In this document: piece after piece, positions 4,739 through 40,453 of the stretch | Numbering within the stretch: the stretch's first letter is position 1 | Layout of the letters: each line of letters starts with the position of its first letter | DNA from: Nitrospinota bacterium | GTDB taxonomy: Bacteria > Nitrospinota_A > UBA7883 > JACRLM01 | Assembly: GCA_016235255.1 (NCBI GenBank) | Contig: JACRLM010000041.1 | Span: 1-40,684 of the forward strand | Direction of reading: 5' to 3' | Length of the DNA stretch: 40,684 bases | Notes under the pieces: model-generated | What the model was told of the DNA's origin: nothing | Seen by the model: only the letters and a program-made list of their open reading frames with translations | The model's database searches: none | Program-made: the position numbers and the translations under genes

Positions 4739-5854
4739 ATGGACGGGCGTTACCTCGAAAGAAGCGCGACCCGCAACTTCGATTTCACCACCCTTGCGCT
4801 GACCATGACCCTTTGCGCCATCGGCTTCATGGCGATATACAGCGCAAATATGCAAAGCGATTCGGCCAACCTGCAGGGGATGTATATCCGCCAGGCCGCC
4901 TGGACCTTGTCGGCGATGGTGATAATAGGCGCAATGATGTTCGTGGACTACAGGACGATGGAAAGGCTTGCCTATCCTCTGTACTGGATAGGGGTGCTGT
5001 CACTTCTGGCGGTCACATTTTTCGGCAAGACTGTCAGCGGAGCCCAACGCTGGCTTTCCCTTGGCGGACTGAACGTCCAGCCGTCGGAATTCATGAAGAT
5101 CGCGGTGATTCTGCTGGTGGTGCGGATCATAGACGATATGGAGAGGGAGACAGACCTGACGCTTTGGGACCTTCTCAGACCTGCGGCGTACGTTGTGGTC
5201 CCTTTCCTTCTGGTGGCCAAACAGCCGGACCTTGGAACGGCCATGATCTATTTCATCATACTCGCGGGGATAGCCTTTTTTGCCGGGATAAACAAGGGGA
5301 CATTGCTGCGCATGGGCGTTGCCATCGCGCTTTTCCTCCCCACGTCATGGATGTTCCTCAAGCCATACCAGAAAAACAGGCTTTTGACTCTCCTTAATCC
5401 CGAGGAGGATCCGATGGGCAAGGGGTATCACACCATCCAGTCGAAAATAGCGATAGGCTCCGGCGGCCTTTGGGGCAAGGGGCTTTTCCAGGGGACGCAA
5501 AGCAAGCTTAACTTCCTGCCGGAAAAGCACACCGACTTCATATTCTCCGTCATATCCGAGGAGGTCGGCTTCATCGGCTCGCTTGTCATACTTTTCATAT
5601 TTTTCCTGCTTATCATGAGGATCGTGGACGTGGCCATGACCTCGCGGGACAAGGGGGGAGCGCTGCTCGCCGCCGGGGTGGGCACAATGATCTCGTTCAA
5701 TTTTTTGTACAACATAGGAATGACCCTCGGCATCGTCCCCATCGTGGGGGTGCCGCTGCCTTTCATATCGTACGGGGGCTCCGCGCTTCTCACAAACGCA
5801 ATCGGGGTGGGGATCGCGCTGAACGTATCGTTCAGAAGGTTTTCCGTTGATTAG
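4739..5854 (+). CDS. rodA: RodA, SEDS peptidoglycan glycosyltransferase
   Basis: Multi-pass inner-membrane polymerase that extends glycan strands from lipid II in the elongasome and works with PBP2. The 371-residue protein has about ten hydrophobic segments and SEDS signatures: GAQRWLSLG, QPSEFMKIA, AKQPDLGTA, the catalytic-loop region LPEKHTDFIFSVISEE, and the C-terminal PFISYGGSALLTN. The start ATG is preceded by AAGGAGG with a short spacer. The 3' end overlaps the TTG start of the next gene by eight bases. mreB, mreC and mreD, which often precede mrdA-rodA, are not in the window; a phosphohexomutase gene occupies that place. Confidence 0.96.
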   Translation: MDGRYLERSATRNFDFTTLALTMTLCAIGFMAIYSANMQSDSANLQGMYIRQAAWTLSAMVIIGAMMFVDYRTMERLAYPLYWIGVLSLLAVTFFGKTVSGAQRWLSLGGLNVQPSEFMKIAVILLVVRIIDDMERETDLTLWDLLRPAAYVVVPFLLVAKQPDLGTAMIYFIILAGIAFFAGINKGTLLRMGVAIALFLPTSWMFLKPYQKNRLLTLLNPEEDPMGKGYHTIQSKIAIGSGGLWGKGLFQGTQSKLNFLPEKHTDFIFSVISEEVGFIGSLVILFIFFLLIMRIVDVAMTSRDKGGALLAAGVGTMISFNFLYNIGMTLGIVPIVGVPLPFISYGGSALLTNAIGVGIALNVSFRRFSVD

Positions 5855-8363
5855 CGGGAAAACCGCGTTCGAACGCGTCCTTTCCAGAACGCGCAAGCCG
5901 TCGTCTTACCTGGGGACGGAGAAAAATTCCGTCCGCAAAGACCACGCCGCCGTCCGCGCATCCATCGCATTTGCGTTCCCGGACCTTTACGACATTGGCA
6001 TGTCCCACCTGGGGCTGAAAATACTGTACGACATCGTAAACAAGCGGCCCGATTTCGCCGCCGAGCGCGTTTTCGCCCCGGACACGGACTTCGCCGAGGC
6101 GATAAAGGCCGAAGGCCTGCCGCTCATGTCGCTGGAGACGAAGACTCCGCTGCCGCAGTTCGACATGATAGGTTTCACGATACCGTATGAACTTTCATAC
6201 ACCACCATCCTGTGGACTCTCGACCTTGCCGGGATACCGCTTCACGCGGCGGACCGTGGCGAAGGACATCCGCTGGTGATCGGAGGGGGGGCGGGCGTTT
6301 ACAATCCGGAGCCGATAGCGGAGTTTTTCGACCTGTTCTACCTTGGCGACGGCGAGGATGGGATAATTCAGCTCATGGAGGCTGCTGCGGACACGAAAGG
6401 GGCGCCGCGCCATGAACGTTTGAAAAGAATGGCCGATATCCGGGGCGTCTATGTCCCGTCGCTGTTCGACGTCTCCTATGAGCCGGAAGGCGGTGTGAAT
6501 AATATAACCCCGCTTCTGGCCGGCCACGCAATGGCGGAACGGGTGTTCCTCCCTTCTCTGTCGCAGTCCCCCTACCCTTTCGACCTTGTGGTGCCGTTCG
6601 GCCAGCCGGCGCACGACAGGCTCAACGTGGAGATAGACAGGGGATGCGTCCAGGGTTGCCGCTTCTGCCAGGCGGGGACCACATACCGCCCGGCGCGGGA
6701 GCGGACCCCCGCCGAAGTGGAACGGATAGTTGACGAGGCGATCCGCCGAACGGGCTACGGCGAGGTGTCGCTCACGTCACTTAGCGCCGGGGACCATTCG
6801 CGCATCGGGGAACTGCTCACCGCGCTCATGGACAAATACGAGGGGGAGCGGGTTTCCGTCTCTCTGCCGTCGCTGCGCCCCGCCACGTTGACGGACGAAG
6901 TGATCCACCAGGCCGGAAGGGTGCGCCGGGGCGGCTTCACCATCACGGCGGAGGCCGGCAGCCAGCGGCTGCGCAACGTGCTGAACAAAAAGGTGACCGA
7001 CGACGACGTTATCCGGGTCGCCTCAAGGCTTCTGGCCGAAGGCTGGAGGTCGCTGAAACTTTATTTCATGATCGGGCTTCCCACGGAGACGGACGAGGAC
7101 GTGGAGGCGATTTACACCCTCGCCTCGCGGCTGGCAGTTTTGAACGTTGAAGGCGCCCGATTCATGAACATAAACGTGAGCGTGTCCAACTTCGTGCCAA
7201 AGGCGCACACCGCTTTCCAATGGCACGGGCAGGACGATATCGAGATGCTACAGGAGAAAAAGAAGCGGCTTTTCGAGATGATCCGGCGCAACCGCCGCAT
7301 CACCCTCAAATGGCATGACGCGCGGATGAGCCAGATTGAGGCGGCGTTCGCCAAGGGGGACAGGCGCCTTTCAAAAGTGGTGGAGACCGCGTATGCCGAG
7401 GGCGCCAGGCTGGACGCATGGACGGAACATTTCAATCACGGCAGGTGGCTGGAAGCTTTCCGTAAATGCGGGCTGGACGTGAAGTTTTACGCCAACCGGC
7501 AAATCGGCCTGGACGAAACACTGCCATGGGACCACATCGCAACAGGGCTTTCCAAAAAGTATTTCCAGCGGGAATGGAAACTGGCCCGGCAAGGGGTGAT
7601 GACGGAGGATTGCAAGACAGGCAAGTGCATCGGTTGCGGGCTGGACCCCGATGTATGCTTCAAGGCGTATGAGACCGCGCCGTTGCCTGCGGCCAGGCCC
7701 AAGGCGGCGGCAGAAGTATCCGGGCTTCGCTTCAAGTACAGACTTAAATTCAAAAAGGTTGGGCTTGCCCGCCATTTCTCCCAGCTTGAGTTCCAGAACA
7801 TAATCCAGCGCGCCGCGCGTATGGCCGGATTGCCCATGGCGTATTCGCAGGGGCACAATCCGCATCCGAAGATATCTTTCGGCGCGGCGCTGCCGGTGGG
7901 GCTGGAGAGCGAGGCGGAGGAGATGGGAATCGAGCTTGCGGAGAACATGGCGCCGGACGCCGTGGCCCGTCGGCTTAACGGGTGCATGCCGGACGGGATA
8001 GAATTCACCGCCGCAAGGTTCGCCATGCCAGGGGAAAAGTCCATCAGCGAATCGGCAAAGGGATACGTTTACCTGCTGCGGTTTGGCGAGGGAGTGACCG
8101 CCGAAGCGTTGCGCCAGCGGACGGAGTGGTTCAACGCCTCCCCTTCCATCGAGGTGGAGAAAGCGCGGGAAAAAGGAGTGAAGCGGTTTGACATAAAACG
8201 GCTGGTCGAAAAACTCGAACCGGGCGATGACACACTTTCGGTAACGTTCACGGTGAACCTCGCCGCAGGGGGCTCCGCCCAGCCCAGGGACGTGGTCCAC
8301 GCGCTGTTCGGCGAAAGCGCCGTCGAATGGAGCGGTGTGAAGACAGGGAAACTGGAAGGATAA
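5847..8363 (+). CDS. Radical SAM protein fused to DUF2344
   Basis: An 838-residue protein of the fused family TIGR03960 (radical SAM) plus TIGR03936/DUF2344. The N-terminal part resembles a B12-binding-like domain (FAFPDLYDIGMSHLG); the radical SAM core has the cluster motif CVQGCRFC (Cys267, 271, 274) with GTTYRPARERTP after it. A short cysteine cluster, CKTGKCIGCG, lies near residues 588-600, and the DUF2344 domain (about 625-838) has the SQGHNPHPKISFGAALPVG signature. The family is often found near ribosomal protein L21/L27 or RNase G genes and its substrate is not established; a role in RNA or translation-factor modification is an inference. The start is TTG, overlapping the rodA stop, and the family's usual N-terminus agrees with it. 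Confidence 0.88.
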   Translation: MISGKTAFERVLSRTRKPSSYLGTEKNSVRKDHAAVRASIAFAFPDLYDIGMSHLGLKILYDIVNKRPDFAAERVFAPDTDFAEAIKAEGLPLMSLETKTPLPQFDMIGFTIPYELSYTTILWTLDLAGIPLHAADRGEGHPLVIGGGAGVYNPEPIAEFFDLFYLGDGEDGIIQLMEAAADTKGAPRHERLKRMADIRGVYVPSLFDVSYEPEGGVNNITPLLAGHAMAERVFLPSLSQSPYPFDLVVPFGQPAHDRLNVEIDRGCVQGCRFCQAGTTYRPARERTPAEVERIVDEAIRRTGYGEVSLTSLSAGDHSRIGELLTALMDKYEGERVSVSLPSLRPATLTDEVIHQAGRVRRGGFTITAEAGSQRLRNVLNKKVTDDDVIRVASRLLAEGWRSLKLYFMIGLPTETDEDVEAIYTLASRLAVLNVEGARFMNINVSVSNFVPKAHTAFQWHGQDDIEMLQEKKKRLFEMIRRNRRITLKWHDARMSQIEAAFAKGDRRLSKVVETAYAEGARLDAWTEHFNHGRWLEAFRKCGLDVKFYANRQIGLDETLPWDHIATGLSKKYFQREWKLARQGVMTEDCKTGKCIGCGLDPDVCFKAYETAPLPAARPKAAAEVSGLRFKYRLKFKKVGLARHFSQLEFQNIIQRAARMAGLPMAYSQGHNPHPKISFGAALPVGLESEAEEMGIELAENMAPDAVARRLNGCMPDGIEFTAARFAMPGEKSISESAKGYVYLLRFGEGVTAEALRQRTEWFNASPSIEVEKAREKGVKRFDIKRLVEKLEPGDDTLSVTFTVNLAAGGSAQPRDVVHALFGESAVEWSGVKTGKLEG

Positions 8364-8730: not shown

Positions 8731-9063
8731 CTATTGCCTTGTCCTGCGTTTGTAATCATCAAATGCTTTGATTGCGTCTTCAATATCGCGTTGCTGGCGG
8801 CGCTTCGTTCCACCGCCCAATAAAAGAATGATTTTGCCGCTTATATTCCCAAAATAAATCCGGTATCCAGGACCTTTATTCAAAGCTACTTCGTGAACAC
8901 CATCTCGTACCGGCCGGACTTTCCCGGGGTTTCCTTGCCGGATCCGCTCGATTTGAATATCAATCAGCGCCGCGGCCGCGCCGAGTGTCTTTAACCATTT
9001 TTCAAAAGGTTTATTTCCATGAATATCCTGATATACAAGAATATCGTAAACAGTCTCCTGCAT
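8731..9063 (-). CDS. HigB/RelE-like addiction module toxin
   Basis: A 110-residue protein of the TIGR02683 killer family, a RelE-fold predicted mRNA interferase acting on ribosomes. Signatures visible are KPFEKWLKTL near the N-terminus, GVHEVALNKGPGYRIYFG and the C-terminal LLLGGGTKRRQQRDIEDA. Three in-frame ATGs exist (9093, 9075, 9063); the third is chosen because GGAGG lies eight bases before it and the resulting length fits the family. The pair sits between the elongasome operon and rlmN, in the opposite direction to the former. Confidence 0.82.
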   Translation of the reverse strand: MQETVYDILVYQDIHGNKPFEKWLKTLGAAAALIDIQIERIRQGNPGKVRPVRDGVHEVALNKGPGYRIYFGNISGKIILLLGGGTKRRQQRDIEDAIKAFDDYKRRTRQ

Positions 9064-9147
9064 AATATCCTCCATGATTTTTTGTTGTTTCATCCATATT
9101 CTTTTCCCTTTCTCTGTTTTTCTCGTTAATAATTGGTTCTCTCAAAC

Positions 9148-13335: not shown

Positions 13336-15630
13336 TCACAGCGCCGGATGTTCGCTCATCGCCTTGATGCGGGCGAAGCGGCGGTCCACCTCTTTCTGGA
13401 AGCCGTCGAGGATGTCCTTGTACGTCGGGGTGAGCATGTGCTTGGTCTTGCCCATGAGCTTGAGCCACTCGGTGACCGGGACCTTCTTCCCCTTGCTTTC
13501 CGGATCGTAGTTGAGCGTGGTGATCCCATGCTCCACTTCGTACAGCGGGAAGAAGTTGCAGTCCACCGCGGCCTGGCTCACCTCCTGGCCGATGTTGTCC
13601 GCGTGGCGCCAGTTGAGCGGGCATACGGAGAATATCTTCCCGAACACCATCCCCTCGTTCTTCGCGAAATACTGCGCCTTGGCAGCCTTGCGGATCAGGT
13701 CCTTGTACATAGACTCGGTGGCCGTGAACACATACGGCACATGGCACGCGGCGAACAATTGCGCCGAGTCCTTGTGCCCGAATTTCTTGCCCCGTCCCAC
13801 CGTCCCTATGTTGGAGGTGGAGGTGGCGTGGCCTATGGGGGTGGTGAACGAAAGCTGGTGCCCCGTGTTCATATACCCCTGGTTATCGTACTCCAGGATT
13901 ATCAGGTTATGGTTGCGGAACGCCGTGCCCAAGGCGGGCCCAAGGCCGATGTCCAGCCCGCCGTCGCCGGTGACCATTATGAAGGTGATGTCCTGGTCCT
14001 TGGCGATCTCCCCTCTGCGCTGCCGTTCCTTGTACATCTCCACAACGCCGGAAAGGGTCGCCGCGCCGTTCTGGAAAAGGTTGTGTATGTACGTCACGGC
14101 GAAGGAGCTGTTCGGATACCCGGTGGTCACCACCATGCCGCATCCGGTGTGCCACAGCATCACCACGAACCCTTCGATCCCCTTGAGGAAAGTCCCTATG
14201 TTCGGGAAAATGCCGCATCCCGGACATGCGCCGTGCCCCGGCACGATCCGCTGGGGCATGGCGGTAAGGTCCCGCTGCTTGACCCCTTTGACTTCCATCA
14301 TCCCGGTCTTCTCGTCCCTGTAAACGGAGACGATGCCGGGGGACTGCTGTTCCTTGGTCAACGTGGCCACGCCGGGTACAGGCTTCCAGTTCGGGTCGCC
14401 CGGCTCCGCGCCGATATAATCGTAAGGTATGGCCACCCTCCCCTTGGACACAGCCTCGGAGGCCAGCCGGAACATCTCCACCGCGTCCTCGGCGAAAAAG
14501 TCTTTTCCGCCAAGCCCGTATATGCGGGAAATGACCATGGTTTTGTTGTCCTGGTCGTCCTTGAGCGCGGACTTCACCTCGTGGGCCAGCCTGCCGCCGT
14601 GGGCTCCATAAGAATCCGCCCTGTCGCCGACAACTATCGCCTTCACGTTCTTGAAGGTCTTGCGTATCTCCTCGGCCGGGAACGGGCGGATCACCGTCAG
14701 ATACACCGCGCCGGCCTTCTTGCCTTCCTTGCGAAGCCTGTCCACCACTTCCATGGCGGTGTCCGCCGCGGAGTTTAGCACCATCACCGCAACTTCCGCG
14801 TCCTCCATCCGGTAGGTCTCCACTTGGCGGTATTTGCGGCCGCTGATCTTCTCGTACTCCTCGAAGACTTTCGGGATAACCTTCTCGGCGGCGGCCATGG
14901 CCAGCGAGAGCTGCTTTTTGTTGTTTATCTGGTCCGGATCGTTCATGTACGGCCCGATGGTGACCGGATTGGCCGGGTCCACCGAAACGTTCTGGGGCTT
15001 GAACGGCCCTATGAAATCCTGGACAGGCTTCCTGTCCTCAAAGTAATAGACGCGCCGCTTCTGGTGGGAGGTGAAGAATCCGTCGTCCGCCACGATCACC
15101 GGCAAACGCACGTCCTGGTCCTCCCCCACTTTCACCGCCGCGATCACCATGTCATAAACAGCCTGCGGATCCTTGGCCAACAGGACGATCCACCCCATGT
15201 CCATCACCGCGATAAGATCCGAATGATCCCCCCGGATGTCCAGAGGGCCGGACACCGACCGGCAGACCAGGTTTAGCACCATCGGATAGCGCGTGCCGGA
15301 CTGCACCGGAAGCTGTTCAAGAGAATAAAGCAGGCCGTTTGCGGACGTGGCGTTGAACACCCTGCCGCCGGCCGTGGTGGCGCCGTAGCAGATGCCCGCC
15401 GCGCCGTGCTCCCCGTCCCCCGGAACAAGATGCACGTTGTGCTTGCCGTTGGCGCCCATCTCGTCCAGATACTCCGCCACCTCGGTGGAAGGGGTGATCG
15501 GATAGTAGCCCATCACGTGGAAATTCACGTGGGAAGCGGCCAGCGAGCTCATCTCGTTGCCCGAAAGGAAATCCACCACCTGCGCAGGCTTCCCGGCCTT
15601 CACGTCTTTCGCCTCGGTAGTCGAACTCAT
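13336..15630 (-). CDS. Pyruvate/2-oxoacid:ferredoxin oxidoreductase, fused alpha-beta subunits
   Basis: Thiamine-diphosphate enzyme that oxidises (or, in reverse, carboxylates) a 2-oxoacid with ferredoxin. The 764-residue protein joins the alpha subunit (about 20-400: GYYPITPSTEVAEYL, GDGEHGAAGI, TSANGL, RGDHSDL) to the beta subunit (about 455-764). The beta part has the cluster ligands CPGCG (469-473) and HTGCG (494-498), the ThDP motif GDGGLDIGLG (555-564) and YDNQGYMNTGHQ. The presence of only a beta-type ThDP domain and a separate gamma-delta protein distinguishes it from the single-chain PFOR. The substrate is most likely pyruvate, but 2-oxoisovalerate or 2-oxoglutarate cannot be excluded. 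GGAGG lies 15 bases before the ATG, unusually far. The gamma-delta gene is 85 bases upstream. Confidence 0.92.
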   Translation of the reverse strand: MSSTTEAKDVKAGKPAQVVDFLSGNEMSSLAASHVNFHVMGYYPITPSTEVAEYLDEMGANGKHNVHLVPGDGEHGAAGICYGATTAGGRVFNATSANGLLYSLEQLPVQSGTRYPMVLNLVCRSVSGPLDIRGDHSDLIAVMDMGWIVLLAKDPQAVYDMVIAAVKVGEDQDVRLPVIVADDGFFTSHQKRRVYYFEDRKPVQDFIGPFKPQNVSVDPANPVTIGPYMNDPDQINNKKQLSLAMAAAEKVIPKVFEEYEKISGRKYRQVETYRMEDAEVAVMVLNSAADTAMEVVDRLRKEGKKAGAVYLTVIRPFPAEEIRKTFKNVKAIVVGDRADSYGAHGGRLAHEVKSALKDDQDNKTMVISRIYGLGGKDFFAEDAVEMFRLASEAVSKGRVAIPYDYIGAEPGDPNWKPVPGVATLTKEQQSPGIVSVYRDEKTGMMEVKGVKQRDLTAMPQRIVPGHGACPGCGIFPNIGTFLKGIEGFVVMLWHTGCGMVVTTGYPNSSFAVTYIHNLFQNGAATLSGVVEMYKERQRRGEIAKDQDITFIMVTGDGGLDIGLGPALGTAFRNHNLIILEYDNQGYMNTGHQLSFTTPIGHATSTSNIGTVGRGKKFGHKDSAQLFAACHVPYVFTATESMYKDLIRKAAKAQYFAKNEGMVFGKIFSVCPLNWRHADNIGQEVSQAAVDCNFFPLYEVEHGITTLNYDPESKGKKVPVTEWLKLMGKTKHMLTPTYKDILDGFQKEVDRRFARIKAMSEHPAL

Positions 15631-15715
15631 GCTTTAAAATCTAACCTCCAGTTTGTCCGGTCAGGCTCCCGCCGCGGGACGCATCGCGCCTCCCGGCCCG
15701 GAACCTGTCGCATTG

Positions 15716-16708
15716 TTAATCCGTGAAACCAGCCTCGATCACCTTGTGATCCACCTCATACTCCACCTTGGAGGAGAGCGCGTCGAACTTGCATATGTCC
15801 ACGCAGCGCAGGCACCCCTTGCAATGCTTGTAATCTATCTTCAGCAGGGTCTGCGCCTCTTTGCCCTTCTTGTCCTTGGCCACGCCCCAAACAAAGCAGT
15901 AGTCCGGACATGTGATGTCACACTCGCCGCAGGATGTGCATTTGCCGTGCGACAGCACCGGGATCCACCCCGCGCGCGACACGGTCAGGTCCTTGTGGAC
16001 CGAATTTCCGGCGGTGTGGATGACGCCTCCCATCGGCTGGTTCATATATCCGATCTTAGCTCCGTCCCGCCTGAAAGGCTGCAGGGGATATTTCCCGTCG
16101 TCCTTGAAGGTCTTTTTCTGGAACTCGGCGGCCCCCCTGTCGAACGTCTTGATGTTCGGCGGGATGAGGTTCGCGTATTTTTTGCCCAGATTCTTCTTTA
16201 TGTAATCTTTCACCGCCTCCGGATCAATAAAGCCGGAAACGGCCGTTATCGCCCCCAGTATGGCGGTGTTCACCCGGGTCTTCTCCTCCACGGCGATACG
16301 CATGGCGTCTATCGTCACCACCGTGCCGCACGCAAGGCGCATCTTGTCCCGCGCCTCGTCCGGGCTCATGGAAGTGTTCACTATCACCGTGGTGTTCTCC
16401 CCCGCGCCGGATATGATTCCCGGGGTGTCCAGCATGGTCTCCAGGAATATGGCGAGGATGTGCGGCTCGGTCACCGGGCTGTTTATCCTCACATCCACAG
16501 ACGGATCGCAAAAGCGGACGAACGCCTTGACCGGGCTCCCCTTCTTCTCCGAACCGTAGCTGGAGAAATTCGATCCGTTAAAGCCCATCCCCAAAACACC
16601 GGCCTCGCCGAGGATCTTGCCGGCCAGGTTGGCGCCGAATCCGCCCACCGACTCCATCCTCACCTCGAAAAAGCCGAGATCGTTCACAACTGGCAGCTTG
16701 GACGACAT
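15716..16708 (-). CDS. 2-oxoacid:ferredoxin oxidoreductase, fused gamma-delta subunits
   Basis: A 330-residue partner of the alpha-beta protein. Residues 8-190 are the gamma domain (FFEVRMESVGGFGANLAGKIL, then YGSEKKGSPVKAFVR), which contacts coenzyme A in this family. Residues 245-312 are the delta ferredoxin domain with two [4Fe-4S] motifs: CTSCGECDITCP (Cys257, 260, 263, 267) and CKGCLRCVDICK (Cys296, 299, 302, 306). The start ATG 16708 is preceded by AAAGGAGA at the right distance; a further 13 upstream codons are open but lack that support. With the next gene it forms a two-gene enzyme with four canonical subunits as two fusions. Reduced ferredoxin from it could serve biosynthesis or HgcB (inference). 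Confidence 0.92.
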   Translation of the reverse strand: MSSKLPVVNDLGFFEVRMESVGGFGANLAGKILGEAGVLGMGFNGSNFSSYGSEKKGSPVKAFVRFCDPSVDVRINSPVTEPHILAIFLETMLDTPGIISGAGENTTVIVNTSMSPDEARDKMRLACGTVVTIDAMRIAVEEKTRVNTAILGAITAVSGFIDPEAVKDYIKKNLGKKYANLIPPNIKTFDRGAAEFQKKTFKDDGKYPLQPFRRDGAKIGYMNQPMGGVIHTAGNSVHKDLTVSRAGWIPVLSHGKCTSCGECDITCPDYCFVWGVAKDKKGKEAQTLLKIDYKHCKGCLRCVDICKFDALSSKVEYEVDHKVIEAGFTD

Positions 16709-17189
16709 AAGAATCTCCTTTGAAACAGCAATGAGCGTCCGCCGCATAAAGCGGGCGCCTTTCCTCCCAAAAATGAGCGGTCATGATACCAGATTTTCCC
16801 GCGTCCACCACATAAAAACAAAGGACAACAGGTATCATCGGCCAAGGACTATCAAGCTCACATAAGGCCATATGACAATGGATCCTGACCCCATCGTTAA
16901 ATGTTATCAAATAAGGTCTGCTGTGTCCCCATGAAAAAGATTCCCGCCATGTGTCAGTTTGTTCCTGGATGTCATGCCAAGCGTCAGCAAAGCGTCTCGA
17001 ATTTCTTTAATTTCAGTTTGAATGAGATTCTTCTGCCTCACCCGGATTGATAAACATGGGATACCCCATTTTCAGCATTTTTTTCGTAACATTTCAAGCC
17101 ATTAAATAGTATGATTTCCTTTGAACGGAATTTTGTTTTATAATTGAAACATTAGTTGTTGACCGACACAACTGCTTGCGGGGGAGCTT
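16709..17189. other. Divergent intergenic region
   Basis: These 481 bases separate the oxidoreductase operon (minus) from the PAS kinase gene (plus). They hold a degraded relative of the MITE-like element (about 16949-17045: GTGTCAGTTTG, GATGTCATGC, GAGATTCTTC), a 19-base motif shared with the metK leader (17079-17097), a likely -10 TATAAT at 17139-17144, and a short inverted repeat AGTTGT/ACAACT (17154-17173) just before the kinase ribosome site. No gene is seen. Confidence 0.5.
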
Positions 17190-22296: not shown

Positions 22297-22878
22297 TCAC
22301 TTTTTTTCCATCTGCTTTTCCAGGTCGAAAATGTACCTGGCGCCGCCTGTCTTGTACGTGGCCTTGAACGATATGTCCGTGGCCTCCAGCGGCCAGGCAA
22401 AGGCATACCGCTTGTTCTTCACGGTTATCACCCCTCCTTCGCTCAACGTGGCCCTCAGCACGGCGCCGTTCATGGGGATGATGTATATCTTGTTGGAGAT
22501 TTCCAGCTTGTAATTGGTGAACACCTTGAAAAGGTCGGCGTATTGCCTGGCGCTGGCCTCTGCGTATCCGTGGATGGCGCTTTCAACAAAGTCCAGCCTG
22601 CGCGAGGTGATGGTCACCCCGTCGCCGGCGGCCTTTTTCACATGCTCAGGGTTTTGGGCGAGGTCCCTCAATGCGTCCAGGTCTTTGCGGCGAAGGTGGG
22701 ACATGGTCTCCTGCGAGCCGAAATTCAAGTAAGTCACGGCAAGCTCACCCGATCCGTCCGGTTTTATTTTCAGGGAGAACTCCTCGCCGTCGTACTCGAG
22801 CTTGCACCCGGCCAGCGCAATGGTTGCAAACGCGAGAAACACCAAGGTGGGGCACATCCGCCGGGCTCGTGAACTCAT
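22297..22878 (-). CDS. Hypothetical lipoprotein
   Basis: A 193-residue exported protein of no family I can name firmly. The N-terminus has basic residues, a hydrophobic stretch and the lipobox LAGC (Cys at about 25), so it is probably membrane-anchored by lipid. After it come FSLKIKPDGSGELAVTYLNF, a pattern seen in LppM/DUF3153-like beta-rich lipoproteins, and a mixed alpha/beta remainder. There is no retention-avoidance Asp at +2 (Lys follows the Cys), so outer-membrane sorting is possible. The prepilin gene follows 33 bases downstream on the same strand, so the two may be co-transcribed. ATG 22878 is preferred over a TTG two codons upstream. Confidence 0.65.
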   Translation of the reverse strand: MSSRARRMCPTLVFLAFATIALAGCKLEYDGEEFSLKIKPDGSGELAVTYLNFGSQETMSHLRRKDLDALRDLAQNPEHVKKAAGDGVTITSRRLDFVESAIHGYAEASARQYADLFKVFTNYKLEISNKIYIIPMNGAVLRATLSEGGVITVKNKRYAFAWPLEATDISFKATYKTGGARYIFDLEKQMEKK

Positions 22879-23058
22879 ATTCAATCAGCGTCCGCCTTTG
22901 GTTTATACGCTTTCACGGCATCGGTTTTTATGCCGTGGCGATACAATAAATAATATCGCATCGAATGGATGATACATTGAAATATCGGCGGTTCGCCACA
23001 TAAATCGAGTATTCCGCTCTGTGAAAATGAAGGGTGGCACGGAAGGAAAACTTAACAA

Positions 23059-23126
23059 AACCACAGAGGCGCAGAGGCACACAGAGAAGATGACTCTTTA
23101 TCTGTGTGTCTCCGCGCCTCAGTGGT
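23059..23126. repeat. CCACAGAG-family inverted repeat, copy 2
   Basis: Left arm AACCACAGAGGCGCAGAG... (23059-23087) and right arm TCTGTGTGTCTCCGCGCC...AGTGGT (23101-23126) pair over about 26 bases with a 13-base loop. It lies downstream of trx and upstream of the lipoprotein gene, where it could act as a transcript end. Confidence 0.7.
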
Positions 23127-23160
23127 CAAATGCCATTTATCGCCGGAGGCGATAAAGAAA

Positions 23161-23487
23161 TCACATGTTCGACTTTATGAGCTCCGAAAGTTCGCCCTTG
23201 GACTTCACCCCGACGACCTGCTTTACGATCTGTCCCCCCTTGAAAAACAGAAGCGTGGGGATGGAGCGTATGCCGTAGCGCGTGGCGGTCTGCCCGTTTT
23301 CGTCCACGTTGAGCTTGCCGACGTTCACCTTGCCGGAATATTCCTTCGCCAGGTCCTCGATGGCGGGGGCTATCATGCGGCACGGGGCGCACCATTCCGC
23401 CCAGAAGTCCACCACCGTCAGCTTGTCGGATTTAACAACCTTCTCGTCAAAATCGCCGTCCGTGAAATGCGCGACGTTCTCAGACAT
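23161..23487 (-). CDS. trxA: Thioredoxin
   Basis: A 108-residue cytoplasmic thiol-disulfide reductase. The active site WCAPCRM (Cys about 32 and 35) and the cis-Pro loop SIPTLLFFKGG are intact, and the length is that of classical thioredoxin. ATG 23487 is chosen because AGGAG lies ten bases before it; upstream codons that remain open lack support. It follows hgcB on the same strand with a 107-base gap, so it may be read from the arsR-hgcAB promoter or from its own. A functional link to HgcAB, for example keeping thiols reduced, is only an inference. Confidence 0.93.
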   Translation of the reverse strand: MSENVAHFTDGDFDEKVVKSDKLTVVDFWAEWCAPCRMIAPAIEDLAKEYSGKVNVGKLNVDENGQTATRYGIRSIPTLLFFKGGQIVKQVVGVKSKGELSELIKSNM

Positions 23488-23541
23488 TATCAACAATCTC
23501 CTAATTCGCGTTTACGTAAATCAAGTTTAGCTATTAGATGC

Positions 23542-23565
23542 GGCGGAATCAACATGGATTTCGCC
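23542..23565 (-). terminator. Hairpin between hgcB and trxA
   Basis: GGCGGAATC (23542-23550) and GATTTCGCC (23557-23565) can form a nine-base stem with one G-U pair and a six-base loop. No T-run follows, so it may attenuate rather than end hgcB transcription. Confidence 0.3.
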
Positions 23566-23594
23566 GGAATGGGCCAAATGTCCGGAAAATCAAG

Positions 23595-23894
23595 TCAACA
23601 GCAGGACGACGATGAAGAGTCCTCTCCACAGCCGCATGCCGGTTCCCCGCCTTTCACCGCCGCGCCGATGAGGGCCGCGGCGCACCCGACGCCGCTGTCC
23701 ACGGCTATAGCCTCCACGGGGCAGTTTTTCTGGCACGCGCCGCACTCCATGCAATCCTCCGGACGGGCAAGCGACACAACATCCTCCCCTTCCGCGAACA
23801 CATCGTGCGGGCAAACAATTATGCACACGCCGCAGTTCACGCAAAGCTCTGCGTCGTAGCGCAGGGTGTTCACCGAATACATGCTCTTTATCAT
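23595..23894 (-). CDS. hgcB: HgcB, 2x[4Fe-4S] ferredoxin for mercury methylation
   Basis: Ferredoxin partner of HgcA, thought to reduce its corrinoid cobalt and perhaps to hand over Hg(II). The 99-residue protein has two cluster motifs, CVNCGVCIIVCP and CMECGACQKNCP (the second is the HgcB-typical CMECGAC form), then VDSGVGCAAALI, which is also typical of HgcB, and a Cys-rich C-terminus (CGCG, a Ser run, and a terminal CC pair). The terminal cysteine pair is the feature proposed to bind mercury. ATG 23894 overlaps the hgcA stop as ATGA; ATG 23903 and 23882 are also in frame. Its place directly behind hgcA completes the diagnostic pair. Confidence 0.93.
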   Translation of the reverse strand: MIKSMYSVNTLRYDAELCVNCGVCIIVCPHDVFAEGEDVVSLARPEDCMECGACQKNCPVEAIAVDSGVGCAAALIGAAVKGGEPACGCGEDSSSSSCC

Positions 23895-24982
23895 GATATC
23901 CATTTTACCAAAAACATACCCGCGACAGCCAGCAATCCAAGTCCGGCCATGGCCGCCATCACCGGGGTGTACGCCGCGATCTCCTTTTTCACCCCGCTAA
24001 GGGAGGTGAACGGCGTGGAGCCTGTGAAATTAAGCGCAAGATACGCTGTCACCGGCGGCATGGCAAGCGCGTAAAAACCAGCCCATCCATGTCTGTCCAC
24101 AGTTTCCCCCTGCCCCGCCAGCGACTGATAAATGAAAGGGGCCGCCGTCACCGCGCCCAGCGCAAAACCTTTCAGGCTGAAATTGGCGGACGGCAGCCAC
24201 GGCAGAAGGAGCGGAAACAGGAAAAGGCCGGAGAAAAAGGCCGAAAACACCGCCATCCCCGGCATCCAGCCGCCAATCAACAGAAGGGCCAGTGTAGATA
24301 AAGCCATCGGCATGAAATAATTCGTAAGCTCCACCGGTATGAGCACAGCCCTGTCCCAAAGGCCGAAGCGGACTTTCCTCATTTCCGGGGCGGCCTTGCG
24401 TGTTTTCATGTATTCAGGCAGGTCCTCCGCGCGCACAGGGCCGTATTCCACCTTGAATCCGGAGCGTTTCTTGGCCAGGTGCGCCGCCACCCCCACCGCC
24501 CCAAGCTGCGGCAGGATCACATGGCGATGCTCCACAATCCCCTTCAGGTCCACGCTGGCGATCCTGTTCACAAGCTCATCCGTGCCCAACGTCCCTTTCC
24601 CCGCCGCGCACCACACGTTCACTCCCTTCGTGTCCAGAACCAGGATATATCCGTCCATCCCCGCCAGGGCTTTGCGAAGCGCATCGAAACTTAACGTGTA
24701 GTTGGCGGTGACAAACACCGGCGACGCTGGAACCGGATTTCCGATGGAGTACAATCCCGGCGCCACCCTGTGCCCGCTCCTGTTCCATCCCAGCCGCGCC
24801 TTGATGTGGTCAACGGTGTCGCTCCATGTGATCCGGGTGGAGGCGGGCCTTATTGCCGCAGGCTTTTGCGTTTCAATAGTGGTAAAAACCTCCATCTCCG
24901 GCCTGTCACCGCCCTTCGGTCCGCAACAGGTTGTTTGAGCGTCTCTGGCGTCCATATCCGGCGTATTGTCCGAAGCGCTCAT
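23891..24982 (-). CDS. hgcA: HgcA, corrinoid methyltransferase of mercury methylation
   Basis: Membrane corrinoid protein that transfers a methyl group to Hg(II), giving methylmercury. The 363-residue protein has an N-terminal cytoplasmic corrinoid-binding domain with the diagnostic cap-helix motif NVWCAAGK (122-129; Cys125 is the predicted cobalt ligand) followed by GTLGTDELVNRI, and five C-terminal membrane segments (about 212-238, 242-262, 271-290, 300-320, 338-358) with GSTPFTSLSG. The membrane segments separate it from the related CFeSP/AcsD. An N-terminal extension carries an extra CCGP (Cys19-20). ATG 24982 overlaps the arsR stop as ATGA, with GGAAAG before it; 47 upstream codons of open frame are inside arsR and are not used. 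Confidence 0.95.
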   Translation of the reverse strand: MSASDNTPDMDARDAQTTCCGPKGGDRPEMEVFTTIETQKPAAIRPASTRITWSDTVDHIKARLGWNRSGHRVAPGLYSIGNPVPASPVFVTANYTLSFDALRKALAGMDGYILVLDTKGVNVWCAAGKGTLGTDELVNRIASVDLKGIVEHRHVILPQLGAVGVAAHLAKKRSGFKVEYGPVRAEDLPEYMKTRKAAPEMRKVRFGLWDRAVLIPVELTNYFMPMALSTLALLLIGGWMPGMAVFSAFFSGLFLFPLLLPWLPSANFSLKGFALGAVTAAPFIYQSLAGQGETVDRHGWAGFYALAMPPVTAYLALNFTGSTPFTSLSGVKKEIAAYTPVMAAMAGLGLLAVAGMFLVKWIS

Positions 24983-25350
24983 TTTGCTTTCTTTCCCATG
25001 GATGAAGCCGGTTTTTTCCGTTCGGGGCAACACGCCTCCAGCGCGCCTGCCAACGCGCGAAGCTTGCCCGCCACCGCCGCCGTGTCCAGCCGGCAATAGA
25101 CCTCCCTCCCTTTTTTCTCGCATATCAAAATTCCCGAATCACGCAGCGCCCCCATGTGGCGGGAGACGACGGAAATGTCCAGATTCATTCCGTCCGCCGT
25201 TTCCGAAACGGTCAAGGGGCGCCCCGCCGAAGCGACCTTGGCCAGTATGGCGGCCCGGGAAGGGTCGCAAAGCGCCTTTAGCATCCGGAACGGCATGCCG
25301 CCGGCGTCAAACCCGCAACAGGCGTTCCCGGTCTTGTTTGTTTGCGTCAT
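24979..25350 (-). CDS. ArsR/SmtB-family metal-responsive regulator
   Basis: A 123-residue winged-helix repressor (MPFRMLKALCDPSRAAILAKV, TVSETADGMNLDISVVSRHMGALRDSGIL, KGREVYCRL). Candidate metal-thiol ligands are CC near residue 9-10, Cys in ALCDPSR and CC near the C-terminus. ALCDPSR is in the position of the ELCVCDL-type site but is not the classic motif, so the inducing metal (As(III), Hg(II) or other) is unknown. It overlaps hgcA by four bases, so it is co-transcribed and likely autoregulates arsR-hgcA-hgcB; arsR-like genes next to hgcAB are known from published genomes. ATG 25350 is placed by the promoter: it lies within a few bases of the predicted transcription start, and no Shine-Dalgarno sequence is seen. 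Confidence 0.88.
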   Translation of the reverse strand: MTQTNKTGNACCGFDAGGMPFRMLKALCDPSRAAILAKVASAGRPLTVSETADGMNLDISVVSRHMGALRDSGILICEKKGREVYCRLDTAAVAGKLRALAGALEACCPERKKPASSMGKKAK

Positions 25351-25385
25351 TGTGCAAATGTACAACTGTCCATGGCGGCTGTCAA
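25350..25385 (-). promoter_or_regulatory. arsR-hgcAB promoter with overlapping dyad operator
   Basis: On the minus strand TTGACA (25385-25380) and TACATT (25362-25357) are spaced by 17 bases. The dyad TTGTACATTTGCACAA (25365-25350), matching its reverse complement at 12 of 16 positions, covers the -10 and reaches the ATG, a natural ArsR operator position. The predicted start of transcription is at or next to the ATG, implying a leaderless mRNA. Confidence 0.7.
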
Positions 25386-25420
25386 GCATTTCTGAAAATG
25401 ATTTATATGCGCCACAGGCT

Positions 25421-25434
25421 GTCATCCGGATGAC
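25421..25434. promoter_or_regulatory. 14-base perfect palindrome between divergent promoters
   Basis: GTCATCCGGATGAC is its own reverse complement. It sits between the arsR promoter and the DUF599 promoter and could be a binding site for a dimeric regulator acting on either side. Chance occurrence cannot be excluded. Confidence 0.4.
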
Positions 25435-25444
25435 CGCTTCTTGG

Positions 25445-25473
25445 TTGAACATCTCCGGCACGTCTGATATAAG
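25445..25473 (+). promoter_or_regulatory. Promoter of the DUF599 gene
   Basis: TTGAAC (25445-25450) and TATAAG (25468-25473) are spaced by 17 bases, 26 bases before the TTG start. Confidence 0.55.
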
Positions 25474-25498
25474 AATCACAGGACATCAATAACGGCGG

Positions 25499-26188
25499 TT
25501 GATTTTGAGACATCTCCCCGGTTATTTCGCCATATTAGGCGGGCAGGACGGCGCATATTTCGTCATGTCCTCCGTTCTGCTTGCGGCATACCATGTATAT
25601 CTGCGCATCCGGATCGCAAAAGATCCCGGCTACACCATACAGTCGGTCAACTTCAAGGCACGGGCCTTGTGGGTGGAACGGATCATGAAAAGCGGCGAGG
25701 ACGGGGTGCTGGCGGTGCAGACCCTGCGAAACTCCACCATGGCCGCCACGCTCATGGCGTCAACCTCCGTGATACTGGTGATAGGCGTGCTCACGCTCAG
25801 CGGCCAGGGGGACAAGCTTGGCGCCACATGGCATGTATTGAACCCGGGGGACATAAGCGCGGAAATATGGCTGCTAAAGCTGATTATGGTGCTTCTTTGC
25901 TTCTTCACGGCCTTTTTCAGCTTTTCGCTTTCGGTCCGCATGTTCAACCATGTGGGATACCTCATCAACGTCCCCCTTTCCATGGGCCAAAGTCTGATTT
26001 CGGCGGAATACGTGGCCGTTTACTTAAACCAGGCGGGGAAGTATTACAGCGTGGGGATGCGGGCTTTCTACTTTTCCGTCCCGCTCATTTTCTGGCTGTT
26101 CGGGCCGCAGTTCATGCTCTCGGCCACCATCGCCCTGATCGTGGCGCTTTACAGAATTGACAGGGCGCCAACAAGCACGGCGGATTAA
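25499..26188 (+). CDS. DUF599 family membrane protein
   Basis: A 229-residue inner-membrane protein of the DUF599 (PF04654) family, of unknown function. Hydrophobic segments lie at about 15-33, 80-102, 124-145 and 188-215; family hallmarks are AAYHVYLRI, the RALWVERIM...VQTLRNSTMAATLMASTS stretch and FFSFSLSVRMFNHVGYLINVP. The TTG start has no strong ribosome site (AGGAC 14 bases away), and an ATG at 25565 is possible but would cut into the first membrane segment. It is transcribed divergently from arsR-hgcAB and may share a control region, but there is no evidence that it works with them. Confidence 0.8.
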   Translation: MILRHLPGYFAILGGQDGAYFVMSSVLLAAYHVYLRIRIAKDPGYTIQSVNFKARALWVERIMKSGEDGVLAVQTLRNSTMAATLMASTSVILVIGVLTLSGQGDKLGATWHVLNPGDISAEIWLLKLIMVLLCFFTAFFSFSLSVRMFNHVGYLINVPLSMGQSLISAEYVAVYLNQAGKYYSVGMRAFYFSVPLIFWLFGPQFMLSATIALIVALYRIDRAPTSTAD

Positions 26189-37976: not shown

Positions 37977-39155
37977 ATGGGACGCATTAACTATCTTTTT
38001 ACTTCTGAATCGGTGTCCGAAGGACATCCGGACAAGATATGCGATCAGATTTCCGACGCGGTGCTAGACGCCGTCATCGGGCAGGACCCCTATGCCCGCG
38101 TCGCATGCGAAACATTCTGCACCACCGGGCTTGTGCTTATCGGCGGTGAGTACACTTGCGACCCGAAGGTGAAGCTGGACGTGGCCCAGATCGCCAGGGA
38201 CGTGGTGCAGGAGATCGGCTACAACGAGTCGGCCATGGGATTTGACTATAAGTCCTGCGGGGTGCTCAACGTGATGCACGGCCAGTCGGCGGACATCGCC
38301 ATGGGCGTTGTGCGCGAGACCCCGGAAAACCAGGGGGCGGGCGACCAGGGGATCATGTTCGGCTACGCCACCAACGAGACCCCGGAGCTTATGCCCATGC
38401 CCATCCTGCTGGCGCACAAGCTTATGCTCAAGGCCGCCGAGATGCGCAAGAACGGCAAGATGCCGTTCTTGAGGCCGGACGCCAAGTCGCAGGTGACGGT
38501 GGAATATGTGAACAGGACACCCCACAAGATAGACACGGTGGTGCTTTCCACCCAGCATAGCGACGACATCTCGCAGGAAGACCTTAAAAAGGAAGTGATC
38601 GAGAAGATAATAAAGCCGGTCATGCCAGAGCATCTTTTCGACGAGAAAAAGGTGAAATTCCACATCAACCCCACCGGGCGGTTCGTCATCGGCGGCCCCC
38701 ACGGGGACACGGGATTGACCGGCCGGAAGATAATCGTGGACACATACGGCGGCGTGGGATCCCACGGCGGCGGCGCTTTCTCCGGCAAGGACCCGAGCAA
38801 GGTGGACCGCTCCGCCTCGTACATGGCCCGTTATGTGGCCAAGAACCTTGTGGCCGCGGGGATCATGGACAAGTGCGAAGTGCAGCTTGCCTACGCCATC
38901 GGCGTGGCGGAGCCCGTGTCGGTGCTGATAGATTCTTTCGGCACGCGCCACCACAAGATTGACCAGGAGAAAATCCAGAAGATCGTGCGTGAGCATTTCG
39001 ACCTGCGCCCGTACGGCATCATCAAGACGCTGGAGCTGCGCCGGCCCATATTCCGCAAGACCGCGGCCTACGGCCATTTCGGCAGGCAGCTGCCGGAGTT
39101 CACCTGGGAAAAAACGGACAAGGCCGACGCGCTTCGCAAGGCGGCGGGGCTGTAA
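37977..39155 (+). CDS. metK: S-adenosylmethionine synthetase
   Basis: Makes S-adenosylmethionine from methionine and ATP. The 392-residue protein has the family hallmarks [24 protein letters not shown] (ATP/methionine site), [10 protein letters not shown] (loop) and [16 protein letters not shown] (P-loop-like signature), all intact and of normal length. AAGGGAG precedes the ATG. ahcY follows 17 bases downstream, so the two form a methyl-cycle operon. Confidence 0.98.
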
Positions 39156-39160
39156 TCTAA

Positions 39161-40453
<1,293 letters not shown>

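What the first reader, a model, noticed from the sequence alone, without database searches (positions are those of the whole stretch)
23595..25350. arsR-hgcA-hgcB: mercury methylation genes
HgcA shows NVWCAAGK with Cys125 plus five C-terminal membrane segments, and HgcB shows CMECGAC, VDSGVGCA and a C-terminal CC pair. Together these are the diagnostic pair for methylmercury formation, a trait scattered across few lineages. The upstream ArsR overlaps hgcA by four bases, so the cluster is probably metal- or thiol-responsive. The rest of the window is ordinary housekeeping DNA, so the lineage is worth establishing.
Basis: partly seen in the sequence, partly recalled or inferred. Interest (0 to 1): 0.93.

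Follow-up and report, generated by a model that had tools for sequence, protein, structure and literature searches.

The report
Mercury-methylation operon in a Nitrospinota-like bacterium
This stretch encodes both halves of the HgcAB mercury-methylating enzyme, next to a gene for an ArsR-type DNA-binding protein that likely switches them on, in a little-known bacterium whose closest named relatives are Nitrospinota; it is predicted to make methylmercury, and no acetyl-CoA synthase was found in its genome, so the methyl group would probably come from S-adenosylmethionine.

Summary
Confirmed. HgcA (24982-23891, -) scores 409.6 bits on NCBIfam HgcA (cut-off 275; CFeSP gamma 69.9 of 306). HgcB (23903-23595, -) scores 108.9 (cut-off 99). 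An ArsR-family gene (25350-24979, -) overlaps hgcA by 4 bases. Cap Cys125, five predicted membrane helices, both 4Fe-4S motifs, GVGC and the C-terminal CC are present. The kind is known: arsR-hgcAB clusters and hgcA-bearing Nitrospinota are in print.

Added here:
1. The lineage is Nitrospinota-like. HgcA pairs with that of a same-family genome; other HgcAs of the phylum lie elsewhere in the tree.
2. Acetyl-CoA synthase was found in 0 of 25 held genomes of the phylum. The own genome has DsrA and heme-copper oxidases, no DsrD. This fits SAM as methyl donor in a predicted oxygen-respiring sulfur oxidiser.
3. HgcA has a disordered N-terminal tail with a vicinal Cys pair. Such pairs occur in 32 of 84 HgcA loci, and in 21 of 116 database HgcAs but never in the rest of those 116 proteins.
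4. The ArsR belongs to a set with conserved Cys pairs; its -10 box lies in a probable operator.

Methylation and regulation are inferred.

The parts
24979..25350 (-). ArsR/SmtB-family regulator, 123 aa; Cys 11, 12, 28, 77, 86, 107, 108
   Evidence: Pfam HTH_5 29.9 (cut-off 22) and HTH_20 36.8 (27); NCBIfam HTH_metalloreg 54.3 (cut-off 55, not reached); Cys positions; Cys107 and Cys108 conserved in 118 and 116 of 120 listed proteins, own included
23891..24982 (-). hgcA, corrinoid methyltransferase with five predicted membrane helices, 363 aa, cap-helix Cys125
   Evidence: NF040863 409.6 bits (cut-off 275); AF2 model; Foldseek best hit 9a0b_A (HgcAB model) E 2.7e-18, 40% identity
24896..24982 (-). 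N-terminal tail of HgcA with vicinal pair Cys19-Cys20 (part of hgcA only if the 24982 start is used)
   Evidence: pLDDT under 50 for residues 1-38; similar to the tail of P0047
23595..23903 (-). hgcB, dicluster ferredoxin with GVGC and C-terminal CC, 102 aa
   Evidence: NF040864 108.9 bits (cut-off 99)
25357..25385 (-). promoter-like site TTGACA-17-TACATT in front of arsR
   Evidence: 10 of 12 consensus matches, the best of 3 sites found in 22850-25600 against a mean of 1.6 in shuffles
25350..25365 (.). imperfect palindrome TTGTGCAAATGTACAA (6 of 7 pairs) that covers the -10 box and ends on the first base of the arsR start codon: probable ArsR operator
   Evidence: residues read through the upstream DNA agree in 10 of 11 ArsR relatives with an earlier start, (their DNA was not seen)
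23161..23487 (-). thioredoxin TrxA, same strand, 107 bases after hgcB; membership in the operon uncertain
   Evidence: TIGR01068 131.9 bits (cut-off 96.8); no terminator-like site between hgcB and trxA

Best explanation
This is an arsR-hgcA-hgcB gene cluster in the genome of a Nitrospinota-like bacterium; its HgcAB proteins are predicted to methylate Hg(II), and its ArsR protein likely represses the cluster until a thiol-binding metal or metalloid is bound. Steps. (1) Inferred: ArsR sits on the palindrome that covers the -10 box; binding of As(III), methylarsenite or Hg(II) at its C-terminal Cys107-Cys108 pair, perhaps with Cys11-Cys12, releases it, and the three overlapping genes are read together. 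(2) Shown by sequence and model: HgcA has the corrinoid domain, the cap-helix Cys and five predicted membrane helices; HgcB has both 4Fe-4S motifs. (3) Inferred from the ND132 enzyme (PMC11588087): HgcB reduces the cobalt to Co(I), SAM methylates it, and Cys125 becomes the lower ligand. (5) Acetyl-CoA synthase was not found, so methyl supply through the Wood-Ljungdahl corrinoid route is unlikely in this cell.
For: HgcA 409.6 bits (cut-off 275), HgcB 108.9 (99). Closest solved or modelled structure is the HgcAB model 9a0b, 40% identity. Overlapping genes. Promoter and palindrome, with x-C-[T/I/M]-M read before the start in 10 of 11 ArsR relatives that have an earlier start. ArsR Cys107 and Cys108 kept in 118 and 116 of 120 listed proteins. 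CdhC/acetyl-CoA synthase in 0 of 25 genomes, with 2 of 14 control genomes (both methanogens) ringing; HgcA is the only CdhD-family match over cut-off in its genome. SAM, not methyl-THF, supports methylation by the ND132 enzyme (PMC11588087, passages).
Against: No activity, expression or binding data for this organism. HgcB is only about 10 bits over its cut-off and the ArsR is 0.7 bits under NCBIfam's. The palindrome type is common (7-2-7 with at least 6 pairs: 73 in this window, 1.8 per kb), and with up to 2 mismatches the genome holds 19 hits against 8 for the reversed pattern, with no clear second site, so the operator rests on its position and on the relatives, some of which are near copies of one another. 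By my reading the ArsR has no Cys where the R773-type site lies. A competing published reading of Dsr in hgcA-bearing Nitrospinota is sulfate reduction (PMC10349881). The genome is 96.5% complete, so a single gene could be missed, though acetyl-CoA synthase is also absent from the same-family genome G013, listed as 100% complete.
Confidence: 0.87

Rival explanations
1. The HgcA-like gene is a CFeSP/acetyl-CoA-synthase corrinoid subunit or an HgcAB-like fusion relative, not a mercury methylator.
For: It shares the CdhD Pfam domain (42.9 bits) and matches CFeSP chains over about 125-145 residues.
Against: HgcA model 409.6 bits against 69.9 for the CFeSP gamma subunit (cut-off 306) and 197.3 for the fusion (cut-off 285); cap Cys, membrane helices and a separate HgcB; no acetyl-CoA synthase found for it to serve.
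Confidence: 0.02
2. The genes are HgcAB by descent, but their native job is not mercury: for example methylation of another soft metal or metalloid under an arsenic-type switch, with methylmercury as a side product.
For: ArsR-family neighbour; methyltransferases that read like ArsM, with Cys pairs, lie just upstream of hgcA in L014 and L016 (my reading), and methyltransferase domains occur in 4 of 79 upstream frames (Methyltransf_25); [quoted passage not shown]
Against: In ND132, HgcAB methylates Hg(II) (PMC11588087, passages); no other substrate was tested here.
Confidence: 0.2
3. The cluster was binned into this genome by mistake or was acquired very recently from another phylum.
For: Of 14 window genes used as queries, relatives' hgcA stretches (at most 18 kb each) showed only hgcA and hgcB; other HgcAs of the phylum lie elsewhere in the tree; identity to one database relative (62%, P0022) exceeds that to the same-family genome (56-59%).
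Against: The same 40.7-kb contig carries nusA, whose named relatives are Nitrospinae/Nitrospinota and whose best genome match is the same family; HgcA joins that family's HgcA and 12 database proteins, one named Nitrospinae, in a 14-row clade at 99% SH-aLRT.
Confidence: 0.04

Closest known systems
ArsR-regulated hgcAB of Pseudodesulfovibrio mercurii ND132 and Desulfovibrio strains (Goni-Urriza 2020; Gionfriddo 2023; known here only through passages of PMC7438021 and PMC10349881)
   Same: ArsR-like gene directly upstream of hgcA, reported there as co-transcribed and arsenic-responsive
   Different: Different phylum; this ArsR belongs to a set with N- and C-terminal Cys pairs; the ND132 regulator's sequence was not at hand for comparison
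hgcA-bearing Nitrospinota UBA7883 MAGs of rice paddies (PMC10349881, passages)
   Same: Nitrospinota with hgcA; Dsr genes and terminal oxidases
   Different: That study found no arsR on any of the 35 hgcAB contigs it selected; here arsR overlaps hgcA; that this species is UBA7883 was not shown; that study reads Dsr as sulfate reduction
HgcAB of ND132 as modelled and assayed (PDB 9a0b; PMC7305189, PMC11588087, passages)
   Same: Corrinoid domain with cap Cys, five membrane helices, dicluster ferredoxin with GVGC and CC tail
   Different: 40% identity; extra N-terminal tail with a Cys pair in this HgcA if the 24982 start holds
ArsR types AfArsR (Cys95-96-102), CgArsR (Cys15-16 plus Cys55) and SpArsR (two Cys, methylarsenite), as described in PMC11868830 (passages)
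   Same: C-terminal vicinal pair as in AfArsR/SpArsR; N-terminal vicinal pair as in CgArsR
   Different: No third Cys after the C-terminal pair; in the alignment with 6j0e (CgArsR by my recall) its Cys55 falls opposite a gap

Membership tests
HgcA (NF040863) | Score over the curated cut-off of the HgcA model | tested here: met
   409.6 bits, cut-off 275
HgcA (NF040863) | Cap-helix N(V/I)WCA(A/G) with Cys | tested here: met
   NVWCAAGK, Cys125
HgcA (NF040863) | Five-helix C-terminal membrane domain | tested here: met
   five long helices in the AF2 model, residues 208-362; a prediction
HgcB (NF040864) | Score over cut-off; two CxxCxxCxxxCP motifs; C(M/I)ECGA; conserved GVGC; C-terminal Cys | tested here: met
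   108.9 bits, cut-off 99; motifs in the translation
HgcAB mercury methylation system | hgcA and hgcB adjacent | tested here: met
   13-base overlap
HgcAB mercury methylation system | Forms methylmercury from Hg(II) | not testable with these tools
   needs an assay
CFeSP gamma subunit (PRK04165) | Score over the curated cut-off; partner acetyl-CoA synthase | tested here: not met
   69.9 of 306 bits; CdhC in 0 of 25 genomes
HgcAB-like fusion protein (NF043039) | Corrinoid and ferredoxin parts in one chain, score over cut-off | tested here: not met
   197.3 of 285 bits; separate HgcB
ArsR/SmtB family | HTH_5 / HTH_20 domain over the Pfam cut-off | tested here: met
   29.9 of 22 and 36.8 of 27; against it: NCBIfam HTH_metalloreg 54.3, just under 55
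Regulator of hgcAB | Binds the operon promoter and answers a metal or metalloid | not testable with these tools
   only position, palindrome and conserved Cys
Nitrospinota | Placement by marker genes | tested here: inconclusive

The most novel reading that the evidence does not exclude
HgcA itself carries a second mercury-docking arm: a disordered N-terminal tail with a vicinal cysteine pair that binds Hg(II) and passes it to the cobalt site, a counterpart to the known C-terminal CC of HgcB, gained and lost many times across bacteria and archaea and overlooked because the model enzyme of ND132, as I recall, lacks it.
Probability: 0.35. Interest if true: 0.62.

Novelty: new member of a known kind. 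Interest (0 to 1): 0.45.

Why it matters
Methylmercury is a food-web neurotoxin, and its makers are mostly inferred from genes. A complete arsR-hgcAB cluster in a Nitrospinota-like genome in which acetyl-CoA synthase was not found, with oxidases and with DsrA but no DsrD, points to sulfide/oxygen interfaces as a place to look and bears on SAM as the methyl source. The recurrent Cys pair in the HgcA tail gives a simple hypothesis, untested as far as my searches show, for how Hg(II) reaches the active site. The palindrome inside the promoter makes the link between arsenic-type sensing and methylation open to a DNA-binding assay.

Tried and rejected
CFeSP identity and HgcAB fusion: rejected on scores. 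Operator by genome-wide recurrence: no clear second site (19 hits against 8 for the reversed control with up to 2 mismatches). Trade-off between a CC in the HgcA tail and a CC in the HgcB tail: no sign, and the test had no power. Shared gene order round hgcAB in relatives: none seen in the stretches taken. My first count of CC tails used a pattern that failed on many rows; it was redone with the cap Cys as anchor. The DsrD search rang in no control genome, so I ran it on four genomes of hgcA-bearing Desulfobacterales loci, where it rang in 4 of 4. The MerB search had no ringing control.

Rows dropped: 4 of 120 proteins without the PGLY anchor. Of 91 loci, L010 gave no HgcA frame; L009, L011, L021 and L033 were left out (fragment, fusion, two duplicates) and L047 and L056 are cut at the contig end, which leaves 84. 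The HgcB tail bears CC in 62 of the 80 loci where it could be read; at least two more (L080, L084) have it behind an in-frame TGA.

Papers: three sought by id were not held (four look-ups: searches are one paper, 61 and 62 two more); what I say of them comes through citing papers. For the N-terminal Cys of HgcA: of the 4 papers that hold all terms I saw passages and none describes it for HgcA, except that PMC13188914 lists an HgcA selenoprotein with motif CU (table passage), which may be such a pair; (10 papers, 8 listed) I saw as a listing only. The search for hgca, arsr and operator found 0 papers. The main mutagenesis and selenoprotein papers could not be read. PMC10839748 searched Nitrospinota for HgcA and HgcB (methods passage); its result was not in the passages I saw.

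Full report
Observation. arsR and hgcA share ATGA; hgcA and hgcB share 13 bases. A thioredoxin gene follows 107 bases later (23487-23161; TIGR01068 131.9 bits, cut-off 96.8). Upstream, a DUF599 gene (25499-26188, +) is read the other way.

Identity. HgcA scores 409.6 bits on NF040863 (cut-off 275), 197.3 on the HgcAB-like fusion (285) and 69.9 on the CFeSP gamma subunit (306); HgcB scores 108.9 on NF040864 (99). The AlphaFold2 model (mean pLDDT 76.5, pTM 0.66, 20-row alignment) shows a disordered start (1-38), a Rossmann-like domain and five long helices. Foldseek's best PDB match is the HgcAB model 9a0b (E 2.7e-18, 40% identity; TM-score only 0.40, rmsd 9.0), then CFeSP structures over about 130 columns. 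A sequence search of solved structures gave 3 sequences, all CFeSP.

Lineage. The genome (2,915,548 bases, 112 contigs, 96.47% complete, 0 contamination) is one of 25 held genomes of its phylum. The same-family genome G013 has a contig of 2,207,735 bases, the length of the contig of P0037, named from a 'Nitrospinae bacterium'. For NusA from this window, 6 of the 45 best hits bear an organism name, and all 6 are Nitrospinae or Nitrospinota. I call it Nitrospinota-like; the class is not settled.

HgcA in the phylum. HgcA is over cut-off in 8 of 25 genomes, own included (10 of 25 have any match). In a 116-row quick tree the window's HgcA pairs with that of G013 (84% SH-aLRT) and joins 12 database proteins, one of them (P0011) named Nitrospinae, in a clade at 99%. 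The HgcAs of G020, G017 and G019 lie elsewhere, and the three of family f6 form another group with one other row. The gene thus looks native to this family, with separate arrivals in the phylum (inference). Of 14 window genes used as queries, only hgcA and hgcB were found on the relatives' hgcA stretches, up to 18 kb each.

Regulator. The ArsR passes Pfam HTH_5 and HTH_20 and falls 0.7 bits short of the NCBIfam metalloregulator cut-off. Of 130 proteins found the best 120, own included, were aligned: Cys107 is Cys in 118 of 120, Cys108 in 116 of 120, Cys28 in 93 of 120, Cys11 and Cys12 in 80 and 75 of 118, Cys77 and Cys86 in 10 and 9 of 120. Of the known As(III)-site types described in PMC11868830 (passages), the C-terminal pair recalls AfArsR/SpArsR and the N-terminal pair CgArsR; third ligands are not matched. 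Within the phylum the next best match is weak (35.2 bits, G021; 11 of 25 genomes, own included, match at all). A different ArsR-like frame lies upstream of hgcA in G005 (L006; HTH_metalloreg 50.6 bits, under the cut-off of 55). Of 79 upstream frames, chosen by a simple rule so that some may not be genes, 11 match HTH_5, 12 MarR_2 and 9 MazE_antitoxin, in line with reports of arsR in bacteria and a toxin-antitoxin gene in archaea (PMC10349881, passages).

Promoter. TTGACA-17-TACATT ends 6 bases before the arsR ATG, so a transcript would start at or near the start codon (inference). TTGTGCAAATGTACAA covers the -10 box and ends on the first base of the start codon. Of 119 ArsR relatives, 11 have residues before a recognisable internal start M. 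In 10 of these 11 a Cys stands two residues before that M, and 9 of the 10 also have Tyr four or five residues before it, most as Y-x-C-T-M. TAC-ATT-TGC-ACA-ATG spells Y-I-C-T-M here. I read this as a conserved cis element; the relatives' DNA was not seen and some of the rows are near copies. The palindrome class alone is not rare (1.8 per kb), and a genome-wide search gave no clear second site.

Methyl source and lifestyle. Acetyl-CoA synthase (PF03598) is found in 0 of 25 genomes; it rings in 2 of 14 control genomes, both methanogens. Over the CdhD cut-off the own genome has only HgcA (one further match at 18.2 bits). DsrA is over cut-off in 19 of 25, own 498.9 bits. DsrD is found in 0 of 25 (no control rang), while it rings in 4 of 4 genomes of hgcA-bearing Desulfobacterales loci. 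The heme-copper oxidase family, which by recall also holds nitric-oxide reductases, is over cut-off in 24 of 25; own best 410.8 bits. MerB is in 1 of 25, not in the own genome (no control rang). PMC10839748 (passages) argues for sulfide oxidation in UBA7883 and UBA9942; PMC10349881 (passages) reads the Dsr genes of UBA7883 MAGs as sulfate reduction. The lack of DsrD favours the first. With PMC11588087 (passages) naming SAM as donor for ND132 HgcAB, SAM is the likeliest source here. The reductant could come from a ferredoxin-reducing enzyme; genes resembling a 2-oxoacid:ferredoxin oxidoreductase lie at 13336-16747.

The N-terminal tail. Among 116 HgcA proteins (120 listed, 4 without anchor; own included with its longer start) 21 have CC in the tail: 36 pairs where Cys frequency predicts 1.78, and 0 pairs in the other 35,745 residues. 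Among 84 loci, own included, 32 have it (starts taken as the most upstream ATG within 150 residues of the cap Cys, so single rows may be wrong). On the quick tree the fewest changes of this state are 22 over 114 rows, 43 of them with CC. G013, the nearest genome, has none. In the window the pair is Cys19-Cys20, 106 residues before the cap Cys, as in P0047. In the passages I saw, PMC7305189 speaks of tail Cys in HgcB only. A role in handing over Hg(II) is my inference.

Verdict. A real and complete arsR-hgcAB cluster: a new member of a known kind, in a lineage already suspected, with two testable additions (the HgcA tail and the promoter element).

Noticed in passing
L045:2972, L080:5416, L084:5211 (ends of the hgcB frames): The conserved GVGC Cys of HgcB is an in-frame TGA and the frame goes on behind it (to a CC tail in L080 and L084): probably the HgcB selenoprotein form GVGU listed in PMC13188914 (table passage).
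   Followed up: partly
L011:1351-2562: G020 carries, besides hgcAB, an HgcAB-like fusion protein (NF043039 374.7 bits, cut-off 285).
   Followed up: partly
L125:4052-4357 (same place as L009): The hgcA of G018 is cut off at the cap helix (157-aa frame); G018 is also the only one of 25 genomes with a MerB match.
   Followed up: no
L014:2992-3921 and L016:3041-3853: Methyltransferase genes that read like ArsM, with Cys pairs near the start, lie directly upstream of hgcA in an Anaerolineales and a Methanoperedens genome (the name is my reading).
   Followed up: no
37977-40453: metK (607.6 bits) and ahcY (640.5 bits) lie side by side 13 kb from hgcA: SAM making and SAH removal, probably chance neighbours.
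   Followed up: partly
8731-9093: RelE/ParE-type toxin-like gene (TIGR02683 92.4 bits, cut-off 62.85); no antitoxin was looked for.
   Followed up: no
5847-8363: Fused B12-binding radical SAM protein (TIGR03960 707 bits plus TIGR03936 174.5 bits).
   Followed up: no
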